Below, piece by piece: positions 29,840 to 42,426 of a stretch of 64,000 nt of DNA. The stretch spans positions 186,001-250,000 of the forward strand of contig JAKLJW010000001.1 in NCBI GenBank assembly GCA_023150935.1. Direction: 5' to 3'. Source of the DNA: Candidatus Binatia bacterium (GTDB lineage: Bacteria > Desulfobacterota > Binatia > HRBIN30). Positions within the stretch are counted from its first letter, which is position 1. Every line of letters starts with the position of its first letter. The notes beneath the pieces were generated by a model. The model saw only the letters and a list, made by a program, of their open reading frames with translations, was not told the DNA's origin and did not search any database. The position numbers and the translations under genes are program-made.

Positions 29840-32695
29840 GTGGAAGGCTTTCGGACGGACCCGGTGGCCTTCGAAACGACGCGAGACCGGGGCGGCGGTA
29901 CCGCGGCCGGAGTCGAACGGTGGGCCCGGCGCTGGCCGCTGGTCGCCGTCGTGGCTCTTGTGACGATTGCCTCGGCCCTGTGCCGGCAGGCGGTTGCAGA
30001 CGAATCTGCAGGTCAGTTGCGGGCGCGCGCGAGGGATGAAATTCGCGCGGAGAAGTTCGACGCCGCGCTGCAAACTGCCCAGCATGCCGTCGAGCTGGAC
30101 GAACGGCTCCACGGACCTGACGATCCGGAAACCGCCGCCTCCCTGAACGTGCTCTCGGCAGCTTACCTCGGCCTCGGCCAGTACGTGCGCGCGCAGGAAA
30201 CGGCCGAGCGCGCCCTCGCCATCCGCGAGACGACGCGCGGCCCGGACGACCCGGAAACCGCCGAATCGTTGAACGACCTCGGTGTCGTCTTCCTCTACCT
30301 GAAACAACCCGAACGCGCCGCCGCTCCCATTCGACGCGCGCTCGCGATCCGGAAAAAAAGGTTGCCCGCCGCCGATCCTCTGATCGCGGAATCCGAAGGC
30401 AACCTGGCCGCCGTTCTCGCCGGCCGCGGCACGACCTTGGACGCAAAAGGCGACCGGCAGGAGGCTGCAGCAGCTCTGACCGAGGCCGCCGAAGGCTTCG
30501 AACGCGCCCTCAAGATCAAGGAAACCGCACTCGGCGCCGGCCACCCTTCCACCTGCGCAACCCGCTCCAACCTGGCGGCAACGTATTTGCGATTGTCCAA
30601 ACTCGGGTCCGGCGCCGATCAAACCCGCCTGCACGCTCGGGCGCAGGAACTGTCGGCGCAGGCTAAGTCGTGCACGGCCGCCGCCGAACCCGGACTGGCG
30701 GCGGCCGCCGCACAGATCAACCAGGGCTGGGCCCTCTGGCGCCAGAACGTCGCCGCCAACGCCCGCAGCGTCGTCGTGCTCGATCAGATGCGCGATCTCT
30801 TCAAGCAGGCCGCGACCGCGCGCGAACAGGTGCTCGGCGCCGATCACCCCGAGACCGCAAACGCGCTCGTCATGCTGGCAACGACCGCGCAGGCCGTCGG
30901 CAATTATCGGCAGGCCCTCGAACTGTTCCGCCGGGCCCTGGCCGCCGAGGATCGCATCCTTGCCGACTTCGTCGCCGCGGGCGACGAGCAACAGCGGCTC
31001 AATCTCCTGCGGCAGGCGCAGGGACACTACTGGGCGGCGCTCTCGATGATTCAGCGGCGGCTGCCGAAGGATCCGGACGCGGTCCGCCTCGGGCTGGAGC
31101 TGGTGCTGCGGCGCAAGGGCATGATCCTCGACGTGCAGACCCGCGTGCGTGACGCGCTATCGCGGCGCCTCGACGGTGCGGCGGCCGCCGCCTGGCAGCG
31201 CCTCGGCGAGCGCCGGGCAGAGCTGTCCGCTCTGTTGGTGAAGGGCCCCGACCCCGCCGACCCGACGAGCTACCGCAATCGCATCGATACATTGCGCCGC
31301 GAGATCGAACAGGACGAGCGAACCCTCGGCAAACAGAGTGCCATCGTCGCCGAGGAGTTGGCGCAACGCGACGTCACCGCCGCCGCGGTCGCGGCGCGTC
31401 TGCCGAAGGACTCCGTGCTCGTCGAGTACGTTCGCATCCGCGATTGGGACGACCAGAGGCTGGAGTGGATGCCGGCGCAGCGATACCTGGCGTTTGTGCT
31501 GACCCCGGACAGCACGGTGCGGCTCGTCGATCTGGGCGATGCCACGGCAATCGACAAGGCGCTGCGGGCCGGCTTCGCGGCCATCGAGGATCCGAAGGCG
31601 TTTACGGACCCGGTCGCCAACCAGAAGAAGACCGATGCCGCCCTGAGCGCCGTGTACCGCGCCATTGTCGAACCTCTGGGCGAGGAAGCGCGCGGCCGCC
31701 GCGTGTGGATCGTCAGTCCCGACGGCGAGATCAACAAGGCGCCGTTCCCGGCACTGCGGAGTGAGGCGGGTACGTACATGGTGGAAGACCGGCTGGTGAC
31801 CCTGGTGAGCAGCGGTCGCGATCTGCTTCGGACCCAGCCTGGTGACCAGCCTCCGCTCGCCATGCTGATGGTGGCGAACCCGAAATTCGACAGCGCCGAC
31901 ACAACCGTGACCACCGACACCCGGCGGCGCCGTCGCCGCCGCGAGGCAGCGCCGGCGGCCGAGCAGAGTCGCGGCCAGTTCCGCTACCAGTTCGGCGCAC
32001 TGCCCGGCACTGCCGCCGAGGCCGCGGCGATCCGGCCGCTCGTGCGCGGCCGCGCCGAGTTCCTCGAGGACGCCGATGCCACCGAGCCGGCGGTCTGGGA
32101 CGTCATCCTCGACCGCCCGCCGCGGATCCTCCACTTCGCGACGCACGGGTTGTTCGAAGCGTCTGCTCCGAACGAGCCGCCCGATCCCACGGGGCGGATG
32201 GGTGGCGGTGCGGGGGCCGGCCGGCCCGACGACGTTCTGTTGCGATCGTTCCTGGCCCTGGCCGGGGTCAACCGGGTGCGCGACGTGCTCCCCAACGCCG
32301 ACGACGGGGTCCTGTATGCCGCCGAAGTCGCCGACATGGACCTGCACGGCACCGAACTGGTCGTGCTGTCCGCCTGTCAGACCGCTCTAGGCGACGTGCA
32401 GACCGGGGAAGGAGTGTATGGGCTGCGACGGGCCTTTGTGCTCGCCGGCGCGCGCAATCTGGTGATGAGTCTGTGGCCGGTCGACGACGAGGAGACGCGC
32501 AACCTGATGGAGCAGTTCTATCGCGCGTATGGGGAGGGGATGTCGGCACCCGAGGCACTGCGCCAGGCCCAGCTCGTGACCTTGCGCCGGCTTCGCGACG
32601 CCAACCAGCGCGGCGAGGCGGCGCAGCCGGTTGCGCCGGTCGCCCTGTGGGCGCCGTTCGTCATCCAGCAAAGCGGTGCAGCGCCGGCGCAGTAG
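29840..32695 (+). CDS. CHAT-domain (caspase-like) protein with TPR repeats
   Basis: 951 residues, GTG start after GGGGAAGG. One hydrophobic segment near residues 34-52, then TPR/Kinesin-light-chain-like repeats (~55-400; LDERLHGPDDPETAASLNVL and IRETTRGPDDPETAESLNDL), then a C-terminal CHAT protease domain (~550-945). The His/Cys catalytic pair is intact: His769 in HFATHG and Cys846 in LSACQTALG, with GEGVYGLRRAFVLAGARNLVMSLW following as in active members. CHAT proteins include gingipain/separase-like proteases and CRISPR- or gasdermin-linked death effectors. It ends 23 bp from the convergent tssM stop; a link to the T6SS is inferred from position only. Confidence 0.85.
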   Translation: MEGFRTDPVAFETTRDRGGGTAAGVERWARRWPLVAVVALVTIASALCRQAVADESAGQLRARARDEIRAEKFDAALQTAQHAVELDERLHGPDDPETAASLNVLSAAYLGLGQYVRAQETAERALAIRETTRGPDDPETAESLNDLGVVFLYLKQPERAAAPIRRALAIRKKRLPAADPLIAESEGNLAAVLAGRGTTLDAKGDRQEAAAALTEAAEGFERALKIKETALGAGHPSTCATRSNLAATYLRLSKLGSGADQTRLHARAQELSAQAKSCTAAAEPGLAAAAAQINQGWALWRQNVAANARSVVVLDQMRDLFKQAATAREQVLGADHPETANALVMLATTAQAVGNYRQALELFRRALAAEDRILADFVAAGDEQQRLNLLRQAQGHYWAALSMIQRRLPKDPDAVRLGLELVLRRKGMILDVQTRVRDALSRRLDGAAAAAWQRLGERRAELSALLVKGPDPADPTSYRNRIDTLRREIEQDERTLGKQSAIVAEELAQRDVTAAAVAARLPKDSVLVEYVRIRDWDDQRLEWMPAQRYLAFVLTPDSTVRLVDLGDATAIDKALRAGFAAIEDPKAFTDPVANQKKTDAALSAVYRAIVEPLGEEARGRRVWIVSPDGEINKAPFPALRSEAGTYMVEDRLVTLVSSGRDLLRTQPGDQPPLAMLMVANPKFDSADTTVTTDTRRRRRRREAAPAAEQSRGQFRYQFGALPGTAAEAAAIRPLVRGRAEFLEDADATEPAVWDVILDRPPRILHFATHGLFEASAPNEPPDPTGRMGGGAGAGRPDDVLLRSFLALAGVNRVRDVLPNADDGVLYAAEVADMDLHGTELVVLSACQTALGDVQTGEGVYGLRRAFVLAGARNLVMSLWPVDDEETRNLMEQFYRAYGEGMSAPEALRQAQLVTLRRLRDANQRGEAAQPVAPVALWAPFVIQQSGAAPAQ

Positions 32696-36185: not shown

Positions 36186-37529
36186 TCAGTCCTTGCCTTC
36201 CGTCGAGATGAAGCAGTAGGCGGCGCCGACCTCCGTGCTCGTGCCGTCGCTGGGCAGCACCGCGCGCAGGGAATCGAGGTACACGCCGGCCCGTTCGGTC
36301 GGCGGCCGGGTCCCGAGGATGGGTTTCGGACTGCTGATCGCCGTCACGAGCTCGGTGCCGAAAGGCGGCTCGACCTGCCATTTCGTCGCGCTGTCCGGAC
36401 CGCCGACGGTCAATGTCGTGCCCGTCAGCCCCGCCTCCCCTTCGCCCGCACCGGGATAGAGATGCCCCACGGTTTCGCGGTCGGCGACGTAGTAGTCGAG
36501 ATACACGTATTGCAGCGGGCGCTTCGCGCTGACCTCGAACACCAGACTGTCGCCGAGGCGATAGACGGTGTTGCAGCCCTTCGGAAGGGTGACGGCCAAT
36601 GCCGTGCCGGCCTGTTGCGCACGCACCCGTAACGGCTCGAGCAGTTCGACGACCTCGCAGAACGGGCGCGGCATCAGCGACAAGTTATCGCGCACATTGC
36701 GCACCTCGGGAACCGCTCGCGCGGTTGCCGTGACCTGCGCTCGCTGCGTCTCGCTTTCGACCCGGCCGGCCAACGTCGCTGTCGCGGTGGCATCGTCGAA
36801 GCCCGCCGTTATCGCACTGCACTCGAAGCCGCGCACTCGCGTCTGGAGATCCGCGAGAATTTCCGGCGGTGTCCTGGGGGCCGGTCCGCGGGGTAGCAGG
36901 AAAAACACCAGCGCCGCGAGCGCGGCAGAGGCCAGAGTCGCCCAGACCAGCGCGAGCGAGCGTGCCGGGCGGCGCGGTGGGGGCTCGGGGACCTCGTAGG
37001 GTTGCGGTGTCAGGCGGAGGCCGCTGCGCTCCAATTCCAGCAGATCGGGGATCGGATCGGGCAGGTGCTGCGCCAGCTCGCGGCGAACCTGGATGAGCTT
37101 GTGCTCCTGCGATTCGTCGTAATAACGGCCGCGGAAACCGAGACACAGACAGAGATGATAGATCTCGCGCACCGCGTGGTCCGTGACCGGCACCTCCGCG
37201 AGCCGCTCGAAGAACTCCTCGCCGGCGTTGGTGGTCCCGTAAAACCGCTTCTGCAGCGGTGCGCGCTTCCAGTTCTGCGCCAGGTCGCGGTTGATGTCAT
37301 GAGCATGTCCGACAATGGCTTCGTCGGCCCAGGCCACGACGGCGAATCGCGCGCGGTCGTAATCGGCGGCCGGTATCTCGTGCCGTTTGACCAGCCGTTC
37401 CTGTTCGGCAAACAACCGGTCCAAGTCCTCCTGCAGCCTGGCGAACGACCGGTCGGTGCCGGTCGAGCGCGTGAAGAGCAACACGTAGGAAATGACCGGC
37501 GTGAAGAGATCGCGCAGGCTGGTGCTCAT
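36186..37529 (-). CDS. tssL: T6SS TssL (DotU) fused to BON-like and DUF4384-like periplasmic domains
   Basis: 447 residues. Residues ~8-190 are the DotU/IcmH cytoplasmic domain (VVAWADEAIVGH, RFYGTTNAGEEFFERL, LCLGFRGRYY). One membrane helix spans ~196-218 (LVWATLASAALAALVFFLLP). The periplasmic part is unusual: a BON-like segment (~235-295, ATATLAGRVESETQRAQVTATARAVPEV-type pattern) and then a DUF4384-like domain (~310-447, GDSLVFEVSAKRPLQYVYLDYYV). Most extended TssL proteins carry an OmpA peptidoglycan-binding domain there instead. It lies 9 bp downstream of tssK. Confidence 0.88.
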   Translation of the reverse strand: MSTSLRDLFTPVISYVLLFTRSTGTDRSFARLQEDLDRLFAEQERLVKRHEIPAADYDRARFAVVAWADEAIVGHAHDINRDLAQNWKRAPLQKRFYGTTNAGEEFFERLAEVPVTDHAVREIYHLCLCLGFRGRYYDESQEHKLIQVRRELAQHLPDPIPDLLELERSGLRLTPQPYEVPEPPPRRPARSLALVWATLASAALAALVFFLLPRGPAPRTPPEILADLQTRVRGFECSAITAGFDDATATATLAGRVESETQRAQVTATARAVPEVRNVRDNLSLMPRPFCEVVELLEPLRVRAQQAGTALAVTLPKGCNTVYRLGDSLVFEVSAKRPLQYVYLDYYVADRETVGHLYPGAGEGEAGLTGTTLTVGGPDSATKWQVEPPFGTELVTAISSPKPILGTRPPTERAGVYLDSLRAVLPSDGTSTEVGAAYCFISTEGKD

Positions 37530-37538
37530 ATTGCCCGC

Positions 37539-38966
37539 CTACTTGCCGTACACGATCACCAGTCGGATCTCGGTGTCGGTGGGCAACTCCGGACAGTAGA
37601 CCGCCATGGTCCGGCGTTCTTGAATCTTGCCCCAATGCTCGTTGCGCCGGTCGATGAGGAAGTACCGGTAGTGGGCGCGCATCAGCAGCTCTTCCGGGGG
37701 CGACTCCAGCACTTCGAGCCGCAGCCCGGTCAGGTACGACTTCTCGAGCTTCGGCATGTCTTCGAGGGCCGTGATCTTCCCCTTGTCCTGAAGCAGGTCC
37801 AGCAGAGCGTTCGGCGCGAGATCGCTGCGGATCGCAAGGTAGTAGCGGTTGTCGCCGGCGAAGAGCTGCTCGTCGATGGCCGCCGCGGAAAAGTACTCGC
37901 CGTCGTAGCGGAGCTGGACGTCGGTTACCGGTCCGGTCGTCATCTCGGTGAGCAGCATGCCGATACGTCGTGACGCGAGATCGAAACACGGGAAAAGCTG
38001 GTCGTGCCGGTACGGCGGTAGCGCGTCCTCCTGACCGGTGGCGCCGAGGACCGAGACGCTCCCCGAGTAAGTCGAGAGCTCGCCGACGAGCTGGCGCAGC
38101 CGCGCGTAGACCACGTGCGGCGGGGTATCGCCCACTTCCAGGTCGTGGTGCAGGACTGGAATGTAGCGGTTCACGGTCTGCATCATCAGCAGGAAACCCA
38201 CGTCGCGCGAACCGAGCTCCACGATCTCGCCCCCGCGGCGGCGGCGATACTCGGCGAGTTCGCGGCCCTTTGCCGTGAGCAGATCGCGAATCTCGCGCAC
38301 GATCCCTTCGAGTACCGGCGAGGAGCGCACGGTGATCGCCGGCGGAATGTAGCGCTTCGAGAGCACTCCGCCGCGGCCGTCGGCGGCGCGCAGTACTTCG
38401 GCGATCTTCACCAGCTCGTAGTCCTGGGAGCGGGCGACCGGGACATCGTAGAGCAAGTGTACGTCGTAGCCCAGGTAGTGTACCTCGCACGTCTGGTCTT
38501 GAGCGGCGCCGAGATCGGCCACCGAGCCGCTCTCGAGGAAGTAACGCCGGTGACTGGGTCCCTCCCGAGTCGGGCGGCCTGCGGGGGCCGCACCCGTGGC
38601 CTGCTCGACGTTGCTGCCTTCGGGTTGGAGCCGGCGGATGGCGAGGTATACCGATAGCGGCTTGCCGCCGGCGTCGAGGTCGCCTTCGAAAGAGCGCGGC
38701 TCGACCCGCGCATTGCTGGGTGCGGCGTCGCCGCGAAACCGCAGCAGCGTCCCATCCCAGGTTACGACCTCGCAATGCTCGATCTGGAAAACGAAGTTCT
38801 GCAGGGCAAGCTCGGTGACCGCCAGCGAGCGCACCCCCCAGCAGAACGGGACGAAGAGGCGGAAGTAGCGGTGCAGGCAGGCCTCGTGGTACCAGTCCTG
38901 TTGCTGGAAATGCTGCGGTTCCAAGAACATCCCCTGTCCCCAGAAGACAGGGCGTAACGGCTCCAT
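37539..38966 (-). CDS. tssK: T6SS baseplate protein TssK
   Basis: 475 residues, a normal size. The N-terminus has the family signature VFWGQGMFLEPQHFQQQDWY. Three-domain layout as in characterised TssK: shell domain to ~180, central four-helix segment (~190-310), C-terminal receptor-binding-like head (~330-475, with PGYEL-type DRRNEHWGKIQERRTMAVYC). TssK links the baseplate to the membrane complex. First gene of tssK-tssL-tssM and divergent from the fused sheath gene; the 218-bp gap 38967-39184 should hold both promoters. Confidence 0.95.
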   Translation of the reverse strand: MEPLRPVFWGQGMFLEPQHFQQQDWYHEACLHRYFRLFVPFCWGVRSLAVTELALQNFVFQIEHCEVVTWDGTLLRFRGDAAPSNARVEPRSFEGDLDAGGKPLSVYLAIRRLQPEGSNVEQATGAAPAGRPTREGPSHRRYFLESGSVADLGAAQDQTCEVHYLGYDVHLLYDVPVARSQDYELVKIAEVLRAADGRGGVLSKRYIPPAITVRSSPVLEGIVREIRDLLTAKGRELAEYRRRRGGEIVELGSRDVGFLLMMQTVNRYIPVLHHDLEVGDTPPHVVYARLRQLVGELSTYSGSVSVLGATGQEDALPPYRHDQLFPCFDLASRRIGMLLTEMTTGPVTDVQLRYDGEYFSAAAIDEQLFAGDNRYYLAIRSDLAPNALLDLLQDKGKITALEDMPKLEKSYLTGLRLEVLESPPEELLMRAHYRYFLIDRRNEHWGKIQERRTMAVYCPELPTDTEIRLVIVYGK

Positions 38967-39184
38967 CGTGGACCTCCGGGCGCTCTCGAATACCGGGCAG
39001 GCCGGCGGCGAGCGCCGTCCGTCTCACTCCCCTAACCTGATGACGGCAGTTGTATCCACGATTGCAACCGGGTGCGCAAGAGCCGTTGCCGGCAGAGAGT
39101 CGGGCGGCGCGGGTACGGTCGGCGCGCGGGTTGTGATAGGGGCAACGCCGGCGCCTCTGGCGCAAAGGTCGCGGAGGGATTGAT

Positions 39185-41059
39185 ATGGCGCAAGAGGTCG
39201 GTCAGCGGCGCGGCGGACGCGGCCGGGTCCCGCGGGTACAAATCGCTTACGATCTGCGCATCGGCGGGGAAGATCGGCGCAAGGAGTTGCCGTTCGTGGT
39301 CGGGGTGCTGGGCGACTTCGCGGGTAACCCGGACCCACCGTTGCCGCGGTTGCGCGAGCGGATGTTTGTGGACATCGGTCGCGGCAACCTGAACGCCGTG
39401 CTCGACGGGCTACGGCCGCGGCTGACTTTCTCGGTCCCCAACCGGTTGGCCCCGGGGGACAGCAAGCTCGCGGTCACGATCCGCTTTGGGACACTCGAGG
39501 ATTTCGGCCCGGAAGCGGTGTCCCGGCAGGTCATGCCGCTACGGGCGCTCGTGAGCCTGCGGCGCCAACTGGTCGCCCTGCGCGAGGCCGGACGCCGCGA
39601 CGGCTCGCTCGAGTCGCAGGTGAAGAAGGACGGCGATGCGCGGGCGTTGGCGGCGGCGCTGCAACGGTGCGGCGAGGTCCCACCGCCGGCCGGACCGGCG
39701 TTCTCCGACGCCCTGCAAGACCTGGCCAGCGCCGCGTGTGGGGGGGCCGACCTCGATGCGGTCCTCAGTGTGCGAATCGCCGATATCGACGTTCTCGTGT
39801 CGGCGCAGGTTAACGAGATCCTGCACGCTCCCGCCTTCCAGCGCCTGGAAGCGGCATGGCGCGGGGTGGCTTATCTCGTGGCGCAGACCGAGACCAGTCC
39901 GGCCCTCAAGGTGCGCCTCCTGCAAGTGTCCAGGGCGGATCTGGTGCGCGATCTGGAGGGCGCCAGCGAGTTCGACCAGAGCGCGCTCTTCAGGAAAGTC
40001 TACGAGGAGGAATACGGAATTCTCGGTGGCGAACCGTTCGGCGTGCTCGTGGGCGACTACGAGTTCGGGCGTCATCCGCAGGACTTCGCGCTCCTCGATC
40101 GCGTGGCCGGAGTGGCCGCGGCCGCGCATGCGCCGTTTCTCGCCGCCGCCGGCCCGGCGCTGTTCGGCTGGGAGAGCTTTGCGCAGCTCGGTCTGCCTAC
40201 CGACCTCCCGCGCCTGTTCGGCAGCACCGAGTACGTCAAGTGGCGGGCGTTCCGCGACATGGAGGATGCCCGCTACGTCGGACTCACCCTGCCGCGTATC
40301 CTGCTGCGCGAGCCGTACGACAGCGAGACCGTCGAGGTCGGTTCTTTCGTCTTCCGGGAGGACGTCGAGGGGCCGGACGCCGCGAAGTACCTGTGGGGCA
40401 ACGCCGCGTTTGCGCTCGGCGCGCGGATTGCCGAGGCGTTTGCCCGCACAGGCTGGAGCGCCGCGATCCGGGGTGTCGAGGGCGGGGGGCTGGTGCGCGG
40501 GTTGCCGAGTCCGTCGGTGGAGACAGACGCGGGCCACGTCGTCGTCAAGGGTCCGCTCGAGCACGCCGTAACCGAGGAACGGGAGAAGGCGCTGGCCGAC
40601 TGCGGCTTCGTGCCGCTGGCTCAATGCAAGGGCACCGACTTCGCCGTGTTCTACAGTGTGCAGTCGTGCCAACGCCCGCGGCCGTACGACACCGACGAGG
40701 CCAATGCCAATGCCCGCCTGTCCACGCAGCTTCAGTACATCCTCGCAACTTCCCGGTTCGCGCACTACCTCAAGGCGATGATGCGCGATAAGACCGGCAC
40801 GGTCACCGACCAGCGCCAGGCGGAGGACTATCTCAACCGCTGGCTCATGGACTACTGCCTCGGAAACCCCGAGAGCGCCGACCTCGAGGCGCGCGCCCGT
40901 AAGCCGCTGAAGGACGGACGCGTAACGGTACGCGAGGCTCGCGGTAAACCCGGTAGTTACGAAGCGGTGATTCACTTGCAGCCCCACTTCCAGCTCGATG
41001 AGCTAACGGTGGCGCTGCGGTTGATCACCGAACTACCGCCGCCGGTGGACCGGCGCTGA
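39185..41059 (+). CDS. tssBC: Fused T6SS contractile-sheath protein TssB-TssC
   Basis: One uninterrupted 624-residue frame carrying both sheath subunits. Residues ~15-150 are TssB/VipA (KELPFVVGVLGDFAGNPD, RLTFSVPNRLAPGDSKL, DFGPEAVSRQV). Residues ~175-624 are TssC/VipB (DVLVSAQVNEILHAPAFQRLE, ASEFDQSALFRKVYEEEYG, GVAAAAHAPFLAAA, RYVGLTLPRILLREPY, HYLKAMMRDK). Between them is a ~25-residue linker without a stop or internal start candidate. TssB (about 160) and TssC (about 490) are normally separate; their summed length fits the fusion. The ATG follows GGAGGGATTG. No hcp or tssE follows, as an IS remnant begins within 300 bp. Confidence 0.95.
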   Translation: MAQEVGQRRGGRGRVPRVQIAYDLRIGGEDRRKELPFVVGVLGDFAGNPDPPLPRLRERMFVDIGRGNLNAVLDGLRPRLTFSVPNRLAPGDSKLAVTIRFGTLEDFGPEAVSRQVMPLRALVSLRRQLVALREAGRRDGSLESQVKKDGDARALAAALQRCGEVPPPAGPAFSDALQDLASAACGGADLDAVLSVRIADIDVLVSAQVNEILHAPAFQRLEAAWRGVAYLVAQTETSPALKVRLLQVSRADLVRDLEGASEFDQSALFRKVYEEEYGILGGEPFGVLVGDYEFGRHPQDFALLDRVAGVAAAAHAPFLAAAGPALFGWESFAQLGLPTDLPRLFGSTEYVKWRAFRDMEDARYVGLTLPRILLREPYDSETVEVGSFVFREDVEGPDAAKYLWGNAAFALGARIAEAFARTGWSAAIRGVEGGGLVRGLPSPSVETDAGHVVVKGPLEHAVTEEREKALADCGFVPLAQCKGTDFAVFYSVQSCQRPRPYDTDEANANARLSTQLQYILATSRFAHYLKAMMRDKTGTVTDQRQAEDYLNRWLMDYCLGNPESADLEARARKPLKDGRVTVREARGKPGSYEAVIHLQPHFQLDELTVALRLITELPPPVDRR

Positions 41060-41250: not shown

Positions 41251-41363
41251 TTGTCCGCGCTGCATACGGGCTGTGAAGGGGCGATCGTAAAGAGGAGGGG
41301 GATGGCGGGCAACGTCCGAGACTCGATCTTATGTCAAACAGGGCGTTTGTACCGGCTATCCGC
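41251..41363 (+). repeat. 113-bp direct repeat, copy 1
   Basis: Begins TTGTCCGCGCTGCATACGGG and ends at the point where IstA homology resumes. It matches 44402-44514 in the same orientation with only two mismatches (A/G at 41266, C/G at 41352). The first 33 codon bases of the istA fragment frame lie inside it. The remaining 41060-41250 after tssBC holds no gene I can support, only a CGGGAG/CTCCCG hairpin near 41174. Confidence 0.95.
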
Positions 41364-41654
41364 TCGCTGATCTTTCGCCGGGCCTATGACGCACTGACGG
41401 CGCGGCGCGATGCGTGGAAGGCGGACCTGGAATACTTGCGCATCCTGCACCTGGCCGCGTCGACGATGGAGCACGACGTCGAGCAGGCTCTGGGGCAGGT
41501 ACTGGAGGCAGGCCAGTGTCCCGAGGTCGAGACCCTCAAGCGGCTGGTGGCGCCCGAGACCATCGCCGTGCCGGTGGTGGAGATCCCGGCGGTGGATTTG
41601 ACCAGCTACGACCACCTGCTCACGGCTGAGCTGGGAGCGGCCCATGAAGCGTAG
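41331..41654 (+). pseudogene. istA: C-terminal fragment of IS21-family transposase IstA
   Basis: 107-residue frame. From residue ~12 it matches the extreme C-terminus of IstA (RRAYDALTARRDAWKADLEYLRILHLAA-type segment). The DDE catalytic core and helix-turn-helix (about 350 residues) are missing. The first ten residues come from the 113-bp repeat, so the apparent start is a chance fusion. It ends with the normal 11-bp overlap with istB. Confidence 0.85.
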
Positions 41655-42426
41655 CGATCTCACACAGAGCCTGGGGTTGCTGCTTGGTGGGCTCAAGTTA
41701 CCCGCGTTCGTCGCGTCCCACGAAGCGTTCGCCCAGCAAGCCGAGCGCGAGGGGTGGACCCACGCGGGGTACCTGCGGCGCCTGGTCGAGCTGGAAATCA
41801 CCGAGCGCCGCCAACGCCGCATCGAGCGCCTGCGCAAGGGCTCGGGCTTGCCCACCGACAAGACCTTGGGCGCGCTCAAAACCGAGAAGCTCCCGGCGAA
41901 GGTCCGTCGACAGGTGCCGGCGCTCTGCGAGGGCGGGTTCATCCAGCGGGCCGAGAACGTCTTGGCGTTCGGGTTACCGGGCCGCGGCAAGACGCATCTG
42001 CTCGCGGCCATCGGTCATGAGCTGGTGCAGCGCGGCTATGCGGTGCTCTTCGCGCCGGCATATCGGCTGGTGCAACGGCTGCTCGCGGCCAAGCGCGATC
42101 TGCTGCTCGACCGTGAACTCAAACGGCTCGACGCCTACGACGCCTTCATCCTCGACGATCTCGGCTACGTTCAGTAGGACCGCGAGGAGATGGATGTGCT
42201 CTTCACGTTTCTCTCCGAGCGGTACGAGCGCCGCAGCGTGATGATCGCCAGCAATCTGGTCTTCTCGCAGTGGGATCAGATCTTCAAGAACCCGATGACC
42301 ACGATGGCCGCCATTGACCGCCTGGTGCATCACGCCATCATCTTGGAGATGACCGGGTCGAGCATCCGCGAGGAAGAGGCCAAGGCGGGTCGGCGCGGGG
42401 CATCGGGCAGCGAGGGGGCGCCGTGA
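41644..42426 (+). pseudogene. istB: IS21-family helper ATPase IstB, interrupted by one stop codon
   Basis: The AAA+ helper of IS21 transposition, 260 codons if read through. Walker A FGLPGRGKTH near residue 114, Walker B AFILDDLGYVQ near 168. Codon 178 is TAG where family members read Gln (usual GYVQQDREE), so a single C-to-T change explains the stop. The frame then continues normally (EEMDVLFTFLSERYERRS, SNLVFSQWDQIFK, AAIDRLVHH) to TGA at 42424. Without readthrough the product lacks the C-terminal half of the ATPase. Confidence 0.9.

What the first reader, a model, noticed from the sequence alone, without database searches (positions are those of the whole stretch)
39185..41059. Natural fusion of the two T6SS sheath subunits TssB and TssC
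A single frame covers the TssB segment (KELPFVVGVLGDFAG) and the TssC segment (EFDQSALFRKVYEEEYG) with no stop between. In nearly all described T6SS these are separate genes whose products interlock in the sheath; single-chain sheaths are typical of phage tails. A covalent link constrains stoichiometry to 1:1 and could change contraction or ClpV recycling, since ClpV binds the TssC N-terminus, which is internal here.
Basis: partly seen in the sequence, partly recalled or inferred. Interest (0 to 1): 0.75.

Follow-up and report, generated by a model that had tools for sequence, protein, structure and literature searches.

The report
Fused second type VI sheath protein
One gene joins the two halves of the contractile sheath of a bacterial injection machine into a single protein; it is a real but uncommon fusion that arose independently several times, and here it affects a spare, second sheath that has also lost the handle by which used sheaths are normally recycled.

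Summary
Window 39185-41059 (+) is one 624-codon frame, with TssB at aa 12-148 and TssC at aa 190-618, both over curated cut-offs and with a good ribosome-binding site. No other frame at the junction encodes the missing piece. The interpretation needs four corrections. (1) The fusion is not the organism's only sheath: a separate tssB/tssC pair lies on contig C33 with hcp, clpV and baseplate genes, while the genome's only tssK and tssM lie beside the fusion. A relative (G009) has the same second sheath pair, still as two genes. (2) The ClpV-docking helix of TssC is absent, not internal; it is already unrecognisable in G009's second TssC. (3) The fusion is not unique: ten full-length TssB-TssC fusions turned up in Holosporales-type and Planctomycetaceae MAGs, each the only TssB of its genome; a common origin with the window's fusion is rejected (p-AU 7.7e-5). 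A truncated kind is also common. (4) The AlphaFold model superposes on single-chain phage, pyocin and eCIS sheaths (Z about 15-17). Best reading: a genuine second sheath that became single-chain and probably cannot be recycled by the known TssC-helix route. New variant of a known kind; function untested.

The parts
39173..39177 (+). Shine-Dalgarno-like GGAGG, 7 nt before the ATG of the fusion
   Evidence: sequence read directly
39185..41059 (+). fused tssB-tssC gene, 624 aa
   Evidence: TIGR03358 and TIGR03355 both over cut-off
39218..39628 (+). TssB (VipA) half, aa 12-148
   Evidence: PF05591, E 4.7e-39
39629..39751 (+). junction, aa 149-189: end of the TssB C-terminal helices, loop aa 161-170 (pLDDT about 63), then remnant TssC helix aa 171-185; the canonical TssC N-terminus with its LLDxI ClpV-docking motif is missing
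39773..40672 (+). TssC (VipB) main sheath domain, aa 197-496
   Evidence: PF05943, E 1.2e-119
40697..41035 (+). TssC C-terminal gpW/gp25-like domain, aa 505-617
   Evidence: PF18945, E 1.7e-40
37539..38966 (-). tssK, the only copy in the genome
   Evidence: PF05936 E 2.6e-95 and TIGR03353; genome search
36186..37529 (-). tssL (DotU) with a C-terminal BON-like + DUF4384 extension
   Evidence: PF09850, PF14326, weak PF04972
32719..36111 (-). tssM (IcmF-like), the only copy by the IcmF N-terminal model; the second half is not recognised by TIGR03348
   Evidence: PF14331 E 3.4e-57, TIGR03348 288 bits, below its cut-off, genome search
41644..42177 (+). truncated IS21-type istB next to the locus; the short ORF 41331-41654 before it has no Pfam match and reads like an IstA tail (inference)
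   Evidence: PF01695, profile 4-165 of 238

Best explanation
The gene encodes a real single-chain sheath protomer: the TssB and TssC of a second, fast-evolving sheath pair, fused in frame by loss of the tssB stop and of the first ~30-45 residues of TssC. The chain keeps the TssB fold, both TssC domains and the terminal strands by which sheath subunits normally interlink, so it most likely still forms a TssB-TssC-like protomer, arranged like a phage or pyocin sheath subunit. The organism also has a canonical two-gene sheath, so one set of TssK/L/M and one baseplate/tube set appears to serve two sheaths. The fusion has lost the TssC helix that docks ClpV in the studied systems and has an altered TssB N-terminus (the TagJ-binding region), so it is probably not recycled by those routes: a single-use sheath, or a poorly disassembled component of a mixed sheath. 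Shown: the fusion, its domains, the paralogue, the missing helix, the predicted fold. Inferred: polymerisation, contraction, lack of recycling.
For: Both halves score as genuine sheath subunits. The junction is coding and in frame. The separate pair on C33 is a different, canonical sheath with hcp, tagJ, tssE/F/G, clpV and vgrG. tssK and tssM are single copies beside the fusion, while TssF, Hcp and ClpV are single on C33. In G009 the second pair lies in the same gene run as tssK-tssL-tssM, and its TssC groups with the fused TssC (SH-aLRT 99), apart from the canonical pair. 112 of 128 near-invariant TssC positions are kept after long divergence, so the core is still under selection, more loosely than in the canonical sheath, where controls keep a median of 99%. 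AlphaFold pLDDT 79, pTM 0.85. VIA-align Z 27.6-30.7 to TssC chains and Z 15-17 to the best single-chain phage/eCIS/pyocin sheaths over model residues 21-619, i.e. both halves. ClpV docks the TssC N-terminal helix in V. cholerae and EAEC (PMC4239648, PMC5048182), and R2 pyocin, which lacks that domain, is not recycled (PMC5807055). Elsewhere fused sheaths occur as the genome's only TssB hit, one in a clear operon with hcp, tssE, tssF and tssG (by reading), so a fused sheath appears compatible with a T6SS.
Against: No expression or assembly data. The second sheath evolves fast (TssC branch 0.44 against 0.18 for its own paralogue) and lies beside an IS21 remnant, which would also fit decay. The TssB half does not group with G009's TssB2. 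Each long-branched TssC2 floats when the other is removed, so the sister relation could be helped by long-branch attraction. P. aeruginosa ClpV1 does not need the TssC N-terminus (PMC4239648), so loss of the helix does not by itself exclude recycling. The AlphaFold confidence is low at aa 492-514 and 603-616. Only one genome has this particular fusion.
Confidence: 0.5

Rival explanations
1. The fusion is an accessory sheath paralogue that does not build a sheath of its own but caps, nucleates or stiffens the canonical sheath, like other duplicated sheath-like proteins (TssC40/ImpD, and the truncated TssB-TssC fusions found here).
For: Duplicated sheath-like genes inside T6SS clusters are common: truncated B-C fusions in Acidobacteriota, Gemmatimonadota and Rhodobacterales and a full second TssC (ImpD) in Rhizobium. 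Agrobacterium needs both TssC41 and TssC40 for Hcp secretion (PMC3702570). The canonical sheath of this genome is complete.
Against: Unlike the truncated class, the fusion keeps the C-terminal domain and 87% of the near-invariant TssC positions, as a full protomer would.
Confidence: 0.22
2. It is a decaying remnant: a deletion fused tssB and tssC in a second cluster that is being lost, and the frame has not yet broken.
For: Accelerated evolution, IS21 fragment next door, no hcp, clpV or tssF at this locus, altered recycling contacts.
Against: tssK and tssM, needed by any T6SS of this genome, exist only here and are intact frames. The 624-codon frame is clean, with a good ribosome-binding site and coding-type GC. 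G009 has kept its second pair too.
Confidence: 0.15
3. It is an ordinary recyclable sheath: ClpV engages it through TagJ and the TssB N-terminus or through other TssC surfaces, and the fusion is neutral.
For: A TagJ-like gene is present on C33 (assigned by reading), and in the TagJ class ClpV1 does not require the TssC N-terminal helix (PMC4239648).
Against: The TssB N-terminal segment that TagJ binds in P. aeruginosa (8-30) is altered here (near-invariant S5, V24, E25 changed; G009's copy changed more). The canonical TssC of the same genome keeps LLDTIL.
Confidence: 0.1
4. Assembly or base-calling artefact joining two genes.
For: Draft genome with 4.57% contamination estimate; a G7 run near the junction; no reads available.
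Against: No other frame carries the missing TssC N-terminus; the joint is inside a 516-kb contig; the TssC sequence groups with that of a genome of the same order.
Confidence: 0.03

Closest known systems
Canonical two-gene T6SS sheath TssB/TssC (VipA/VipB; solved in V. cholerae, P. aeruginosa, M. xanthus, A. vinelandii)
   Same: TIGR03358 + TIGR03355 over cut-off; up to 62% TssC identity to T6SS sheaths of other phyla; TssC fold Z about 28-31
   Different: one chain; TssC N-terminal ClpV-docking region missing; second copy in a genome that also has a canonical pair
Second, still separate sheath pair tssB2/tssC2 of G009 (same order)
   Same: TssC halves are sisters (SH-aLRT 99); both in or next to a tssK-tssL-tssM run; both lack a recognisable LLDxI motif
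   Different: two genes with an intervening TGA stop in the same frame; different gene order
Full-length TssB-TssC fusions of Holosporales-type and Planctomycetaceae MAGs (L074, L079, L080, L082, L092, L097, L111, L113, L115, L118)
   Same: single chain, 631-693 aa, all three Pfam domains in the three tested
   Different: 43-46% identity; common origin with the window fusion rejected (p-AU 7.7e-5); those tested keep a TssC N-terminal region in the linker; the only TssB in their genomes
Truncated TssB-TssC fusions (e.g. L107, L116, L125; Qingshengfaniella WP_240804492.1)
   Same: TssB and TssC main domain in one frame, inside or near T6SS clusters
   Different: no C-terminal PF18945 domain, about 30% identity, extra to a normal sheath pair
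Single-chain contractile sheaths (phage tails, R2 pyocin, eCIS)
   Same: predicted chain superposes over both halves, Z 15-17 for the best; N-terminal TssC helix absent as in R2 pyocin (PMC5807055)
   Different: about 10% identity; lies in a T6SS locus; no phage-sheath Pfam match
TssC40/ImpD of rhizobia and Agrobacterium
   Same: a second TssC-like protein in a T6SS with TagJ
   Different: ImpD has no TssB half (R. phaseoli copy)

Membership tests
T6SS sheath, small subunit TssB | match to TIGR03358 over the curated cut-off | tested here: met
   128.8 bits against 97.25
T6SS sheath, large subunit TssC | match to TIGR03355 over the curated cut-off with both TssC domains | tested here: met
   578.7 bits against 271.5; PF05943 + PF18945
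T6SS sheath | genetic linkage to T6SS core genes | tested here: met
   divergent from tssK-tssL-tssM, the genome's only TssK and TssM; the rest on contig C33
Canonical two-gene TssB/TssC sheath | two separate polypeptides | tested here: not met
   single 624-codon frame
ClpV-recycled sheath (VipB type) | TssC N-terminal helix with LLDEII-like motif | tested here: not met
   model match starts at position 46; no hit of the N-terminal HMM in any frame
ClpV-recycled sheath (TagJ type) | TssB N-terminus bound by TagJ | tested here: inconclusive
   TagJ-like gene on C33 (by reading), but the TssB N-terminus is altered; binding not testable here
Single-chain phage/eCIS-type sheath | single-chain sheath fold | tested here: met
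   VIA-align Z 15-17 to phage, AFP, pyocin, PVC sheaths across both halves, on a predicted model
Single-chain phage/eCIS-type sheath | sequence membership in a phage-sheath family | tested here: not met
   only T6SS families in Pfam-A
Holosporales/Planctomycete full-length TssB-TssC fusions | common origin of the fusion | tested here: not met
   one clade including the window rejected, p-AU 7.7e-5
TssC40/ImpD | TssC-like protein without a TssB half | tested here: not met
   R. phaseoli ImpD-position protein has PF05943 + PF18945 only; the window protein has PF05591 as well
Functional contractile sheath | assembly and contraction in vivo | not testable with these tools
   needs microscopy or cryo-EM

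The most novel reading that the evidence does not exclude
A T6SS with one baseplate and membrane complex but two sheaths: one canonical and recyclable, the other a single-chain, phage-like sheath that has shed its ClpV handle and fires once. More generally, covalent fusion of TssB and TssC may have evolved repeatedly where ClpV recycling was given up: in the fused-sheath genomes where the best ClpV-model match was checked, it was a ClpB or ClpB-like chaperone, not ClpV.
Probability: 0.3. Interest if true: 0.68.

Novelty: new variant of a known kind. Interest (0 to 1): 0.48.

Why it matters
T6SS sheaths differ from phage sheaths in being two-chain and recyclable. Natural TssB-TssC fusions, arisen more than once, are a comparative experiment on whether the split into two chains serves recycling. 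In the window the ClpV-docking region is gone as well. In the other fused-sheath genomes that were checked, no match reached the ClpV cut-off, and the proteins read out were ClpB or ClpB-like. If confirmed, this would link sheath architecture to recycling and make it directly testable. I found no description of natural TssB-TssC fusions in the open papers searched; most subscription journals are not in that library.

Tried and rejected
Literature searches for a described natural TssB-TssC fusion found none. I first read the 'open_frame_aa' values of 661 and 688 in the genome search as fusions in G009 and G038; the sequence shows an in-frame TGA or TAA between the genes, so that column alone was not used as evidence. 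I considered that the truncated fusions are ImpD/TssC40; rejected, because the R. phaseoli ImpD-position protein has both TssC domains and no TssB. The TssB-only tree was too poorly resolved to place the TssB half. An AU test of a single origin of the other ten fusions did not finish. The absence of a ClpV gene near the ten fusions (0 of 10 loci, against 44 of 49 other loci of 15 kb or more) is confounded by kinship and by short contigs: the unfused alphaproteobacterial loci L087, L094 and L105 also lack one in the flank. In Francisella, ClpB takes part in T6SS disassembly (PMC6063899, abstract), so ClpB could stand in. Promoter and terminator scans gave no more sites than chance.

Full report
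Observation. The window has one open frame at 39185-41059 (+), 624 codons, ATG start, with GGAGG seven bases upstream. It matches the T6SS small sheath subunit at aa 10-147 and the large subunit at aa 190-618, both over the curated cut-offs. Pfam finds VipA, VipB and the C-terminal VipB_2 domain in order. GC at the third codon position stays high in this frame through the junction, and neither other forward frame resembles TssC. A profile of canonical TssC N-termini finds no hit in any frame around the gene. Two ordinary genes joined by a sequencing error would leave the TssC N-terminus in another frame, and it is not there. I had no reads, so an artefact is unlikely but not excluded.

What is missing. 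Canonical TssC starts with about 45 residues that include an LLDxI helix. In V. cholerae and EAEC an N-terminal TssC helix docks into the N-domain of ClpV (PMC4239648, PMC5048182). In the window the TssC model match starts at position 46, and the junction reads LESQVKKDGDARALAAALQRCGEVPPPAGPAFSDALQDLASAACGGADLDAVLSVRIADID. The helix is therefore absent, not buried inside the chain. The organism's other TssC keeps LLDTIL.

Surroundings. Upstream, on the other strand, lie tssK, tssL (with a BON-like/DUF4384 tail) and tssM. A truncated IS21 istB follows the fusion. No hcp, clpV or further baseplate gene was seen at this locus. The genome has a second T6SS locus on contig C33 with separate tssB and tssC, hcp, a TagJ-like gene, tssE, tssF, tssG, clpV and vgrG (several assigned by reading the sequence; TssF, Hcp and ClpV by model). 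TssK and TssM occur once, only in the window; TssF, Hcp and true ClpV occur once, only on C33. So the parts of one machine are split over two loci, and there are two sheaths for one set of the other parts that were counted.

Relatives. Of 15 genomes of the order only two have T6SS sheath genes. The other, G009, has both sheath pairs in one cluster, the second pair in a gene run with tssK-tssL-tssM and still two genes with an in-frame TGA between them. In the TssC tree the window TssC and G009's TssC2 are sisters (SH-aLRT 99), and the two canonical TssCs are sisters (99) on shorter branches. Placing the window TssC with its own canonical paralogue is disfavoured (p-AU 0.011). When either TssC2 is removed the other floats, and the TssB halves do not resolve, so an ancient second pair is the best but not a certain reading. 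Near-invariant TssC positions are kept at 112 of 128 in the window and 104 of 128 in G009's second copy; canonical rows keep a median of 99%. The second sheath evolves faster but is not random. G009's second TssC also scores almost nothing on the N-terminal profile, so the ClpV handle may have been lost before the fusion.

Other fusions. A scan of about 85,000 species genomes with the window protein kept 80 loci. By reading frames, ten of them hold full-length TssB-TssC fusions of 631-693 aa: Holosporaceae, Odyssella, Finniella and other alphaproteobacterial MAGs, and Planctomycetaceae MAGs. The three tested have all three Pfam domains, and in each of the ten genomes the fusion is the only TssB (in G156 two adjoining matches in one frame). 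In the L074 locus the fusion is followed by what reads as hcp, tssE, tssF and tssG. Those tested keep a TssC N-terminal region in the linker (weakly in L092). Joining them with the window fusion in one clade is rejected (p-AU 7.7e-5). Among 395 genomes drawn from the window's phylum, 43 had matches at E <= 1e-20 and none showed another full-length fusion as one match. These are lower bounds, since only the best loci were inspected.

ClpV. In six fused-sheath genomes I searched for ClpV. Five gave long matches below the ClpV cut-off. Four of these proteins were read out: three score over the ClpB cut-off, and the fourth (Planctomycetaceae) scores best on ClpB but below its cut-off. The fifth, G150, was judged only by its similar score. 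The sixth, G153, gave no convincing match. The window organism itself has a true ClpV at 1303 bits and a ClpB-level match at 829. This suggests fused sheaths go with loss of ClpV. It is confounded by relatedness and incomplete MAGs, and unfused alphaproteobacterial relatives also lack clpV near the sheath genes.

Fold. An AlphaFold2 model from 38 aligned sequences has mean pLDDT 79 and pTM 0.85; the loop at aa 161-170 is less certain (about 63), and aa 492-514 and 603-616 are poor. Foldseek and VIA-align give TssC chains first (Z 27.6-30.7). Single-chain sheaths of phages, AFP, PVC and R2 pyocin follow, the best at Z 15-17, aligned from about model residue 21-36 to about 606, so the TssB half packs on the TssC half as in a phage-type subunit. 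R2 pyocin lacks the TssC N-terminal domain and is not recycled (PMC5807055).

Mechanism. The best-supported explanation is that a duplicated sheath pair lost its ClpV contacts and then became one chain, giving a sheath protomer that can probably assemble but is poorly or not recycled through the known routes. Polymerisation, contraction and single use are inferences. The main rival is an accessory paralogue that modifies the canonical sheath: duplicated sheath-like proteins are common (truncated fusions; ImpD), and in Agrobacterium the second TssC is needed for Hcp secretion (PMC3702570). Decay is possible but less likely, because tssK and tssM of the only T6SS lie here and the frame is clean.

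Verdict. The finding is real and moderately interesting: a new variant of a known kind, not unique. What deserves attention is the repeated origin of single-chain T6SS sheaths and their possible link to loss of ClpV-driven recycling.

Noticed in passing
L107 5982-7538, L116 6047-7570, L114 4-1542, L103 6387-7781, L122 2352-3899, L125 1862-3379, L099 4292-5950, L036 8528-10120, L037 9101-10651; plasmid NZ_CP042263.1 (L128 4492-7683): A widespread truncated TssB-TssC fusion (465-531 aa; 1063 aa in Qingshengfaniella) with VipA + VipB domains and no VipB_2, present as an extra gene in genomes with normal sheath pairs in Acidobacteriota, Gemmatimonadota and Rhodobacterales (annotated there as a large sheath subunit). 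Distinct from ImpD/TssC40; function unknown.
   Followed up: partly
G148-G152 (genomes of L074, L111, L115, L113, L118): Genomes whose only TssB is fused to TssC: the best match to the ClpV model is below its cut-off and is ClpB or ClpB-like where read out (three over the ClpB cut-off, one ClpB-like, one judged by score alone), so ClpV may be absent; confounded by kinship and MAG incompleteness.
   Followed up: partly
L015 (G009:C14 138000-157999) and L040: A single T6SS cluster with two complete sheath pairs (tssB1C1 and tssB2C2) and one of most other parts: an apparent dual-sheath T6SS.
   Followed up: partly
window 36186-37529 (-): TssL with a C-terminal BON-like + DUF4384 extension instead of a usual peptidoglycan-binding domain.
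   Followed up: no
window 29840-32695 (+): 951-aa TPR + CHAT (caspase-like) protein just beyond tssM.
   Followed up: no
L048-L068 loci (e.g. Salinicola, Halomonas, Marinobacter, Pyrinomonadaceae): tssB and tssC are often in the same frame with only a stop and a short gap between them, so a single stop-codon loss could fuse them; this may explain why fusions recur.
   Followed up: partly
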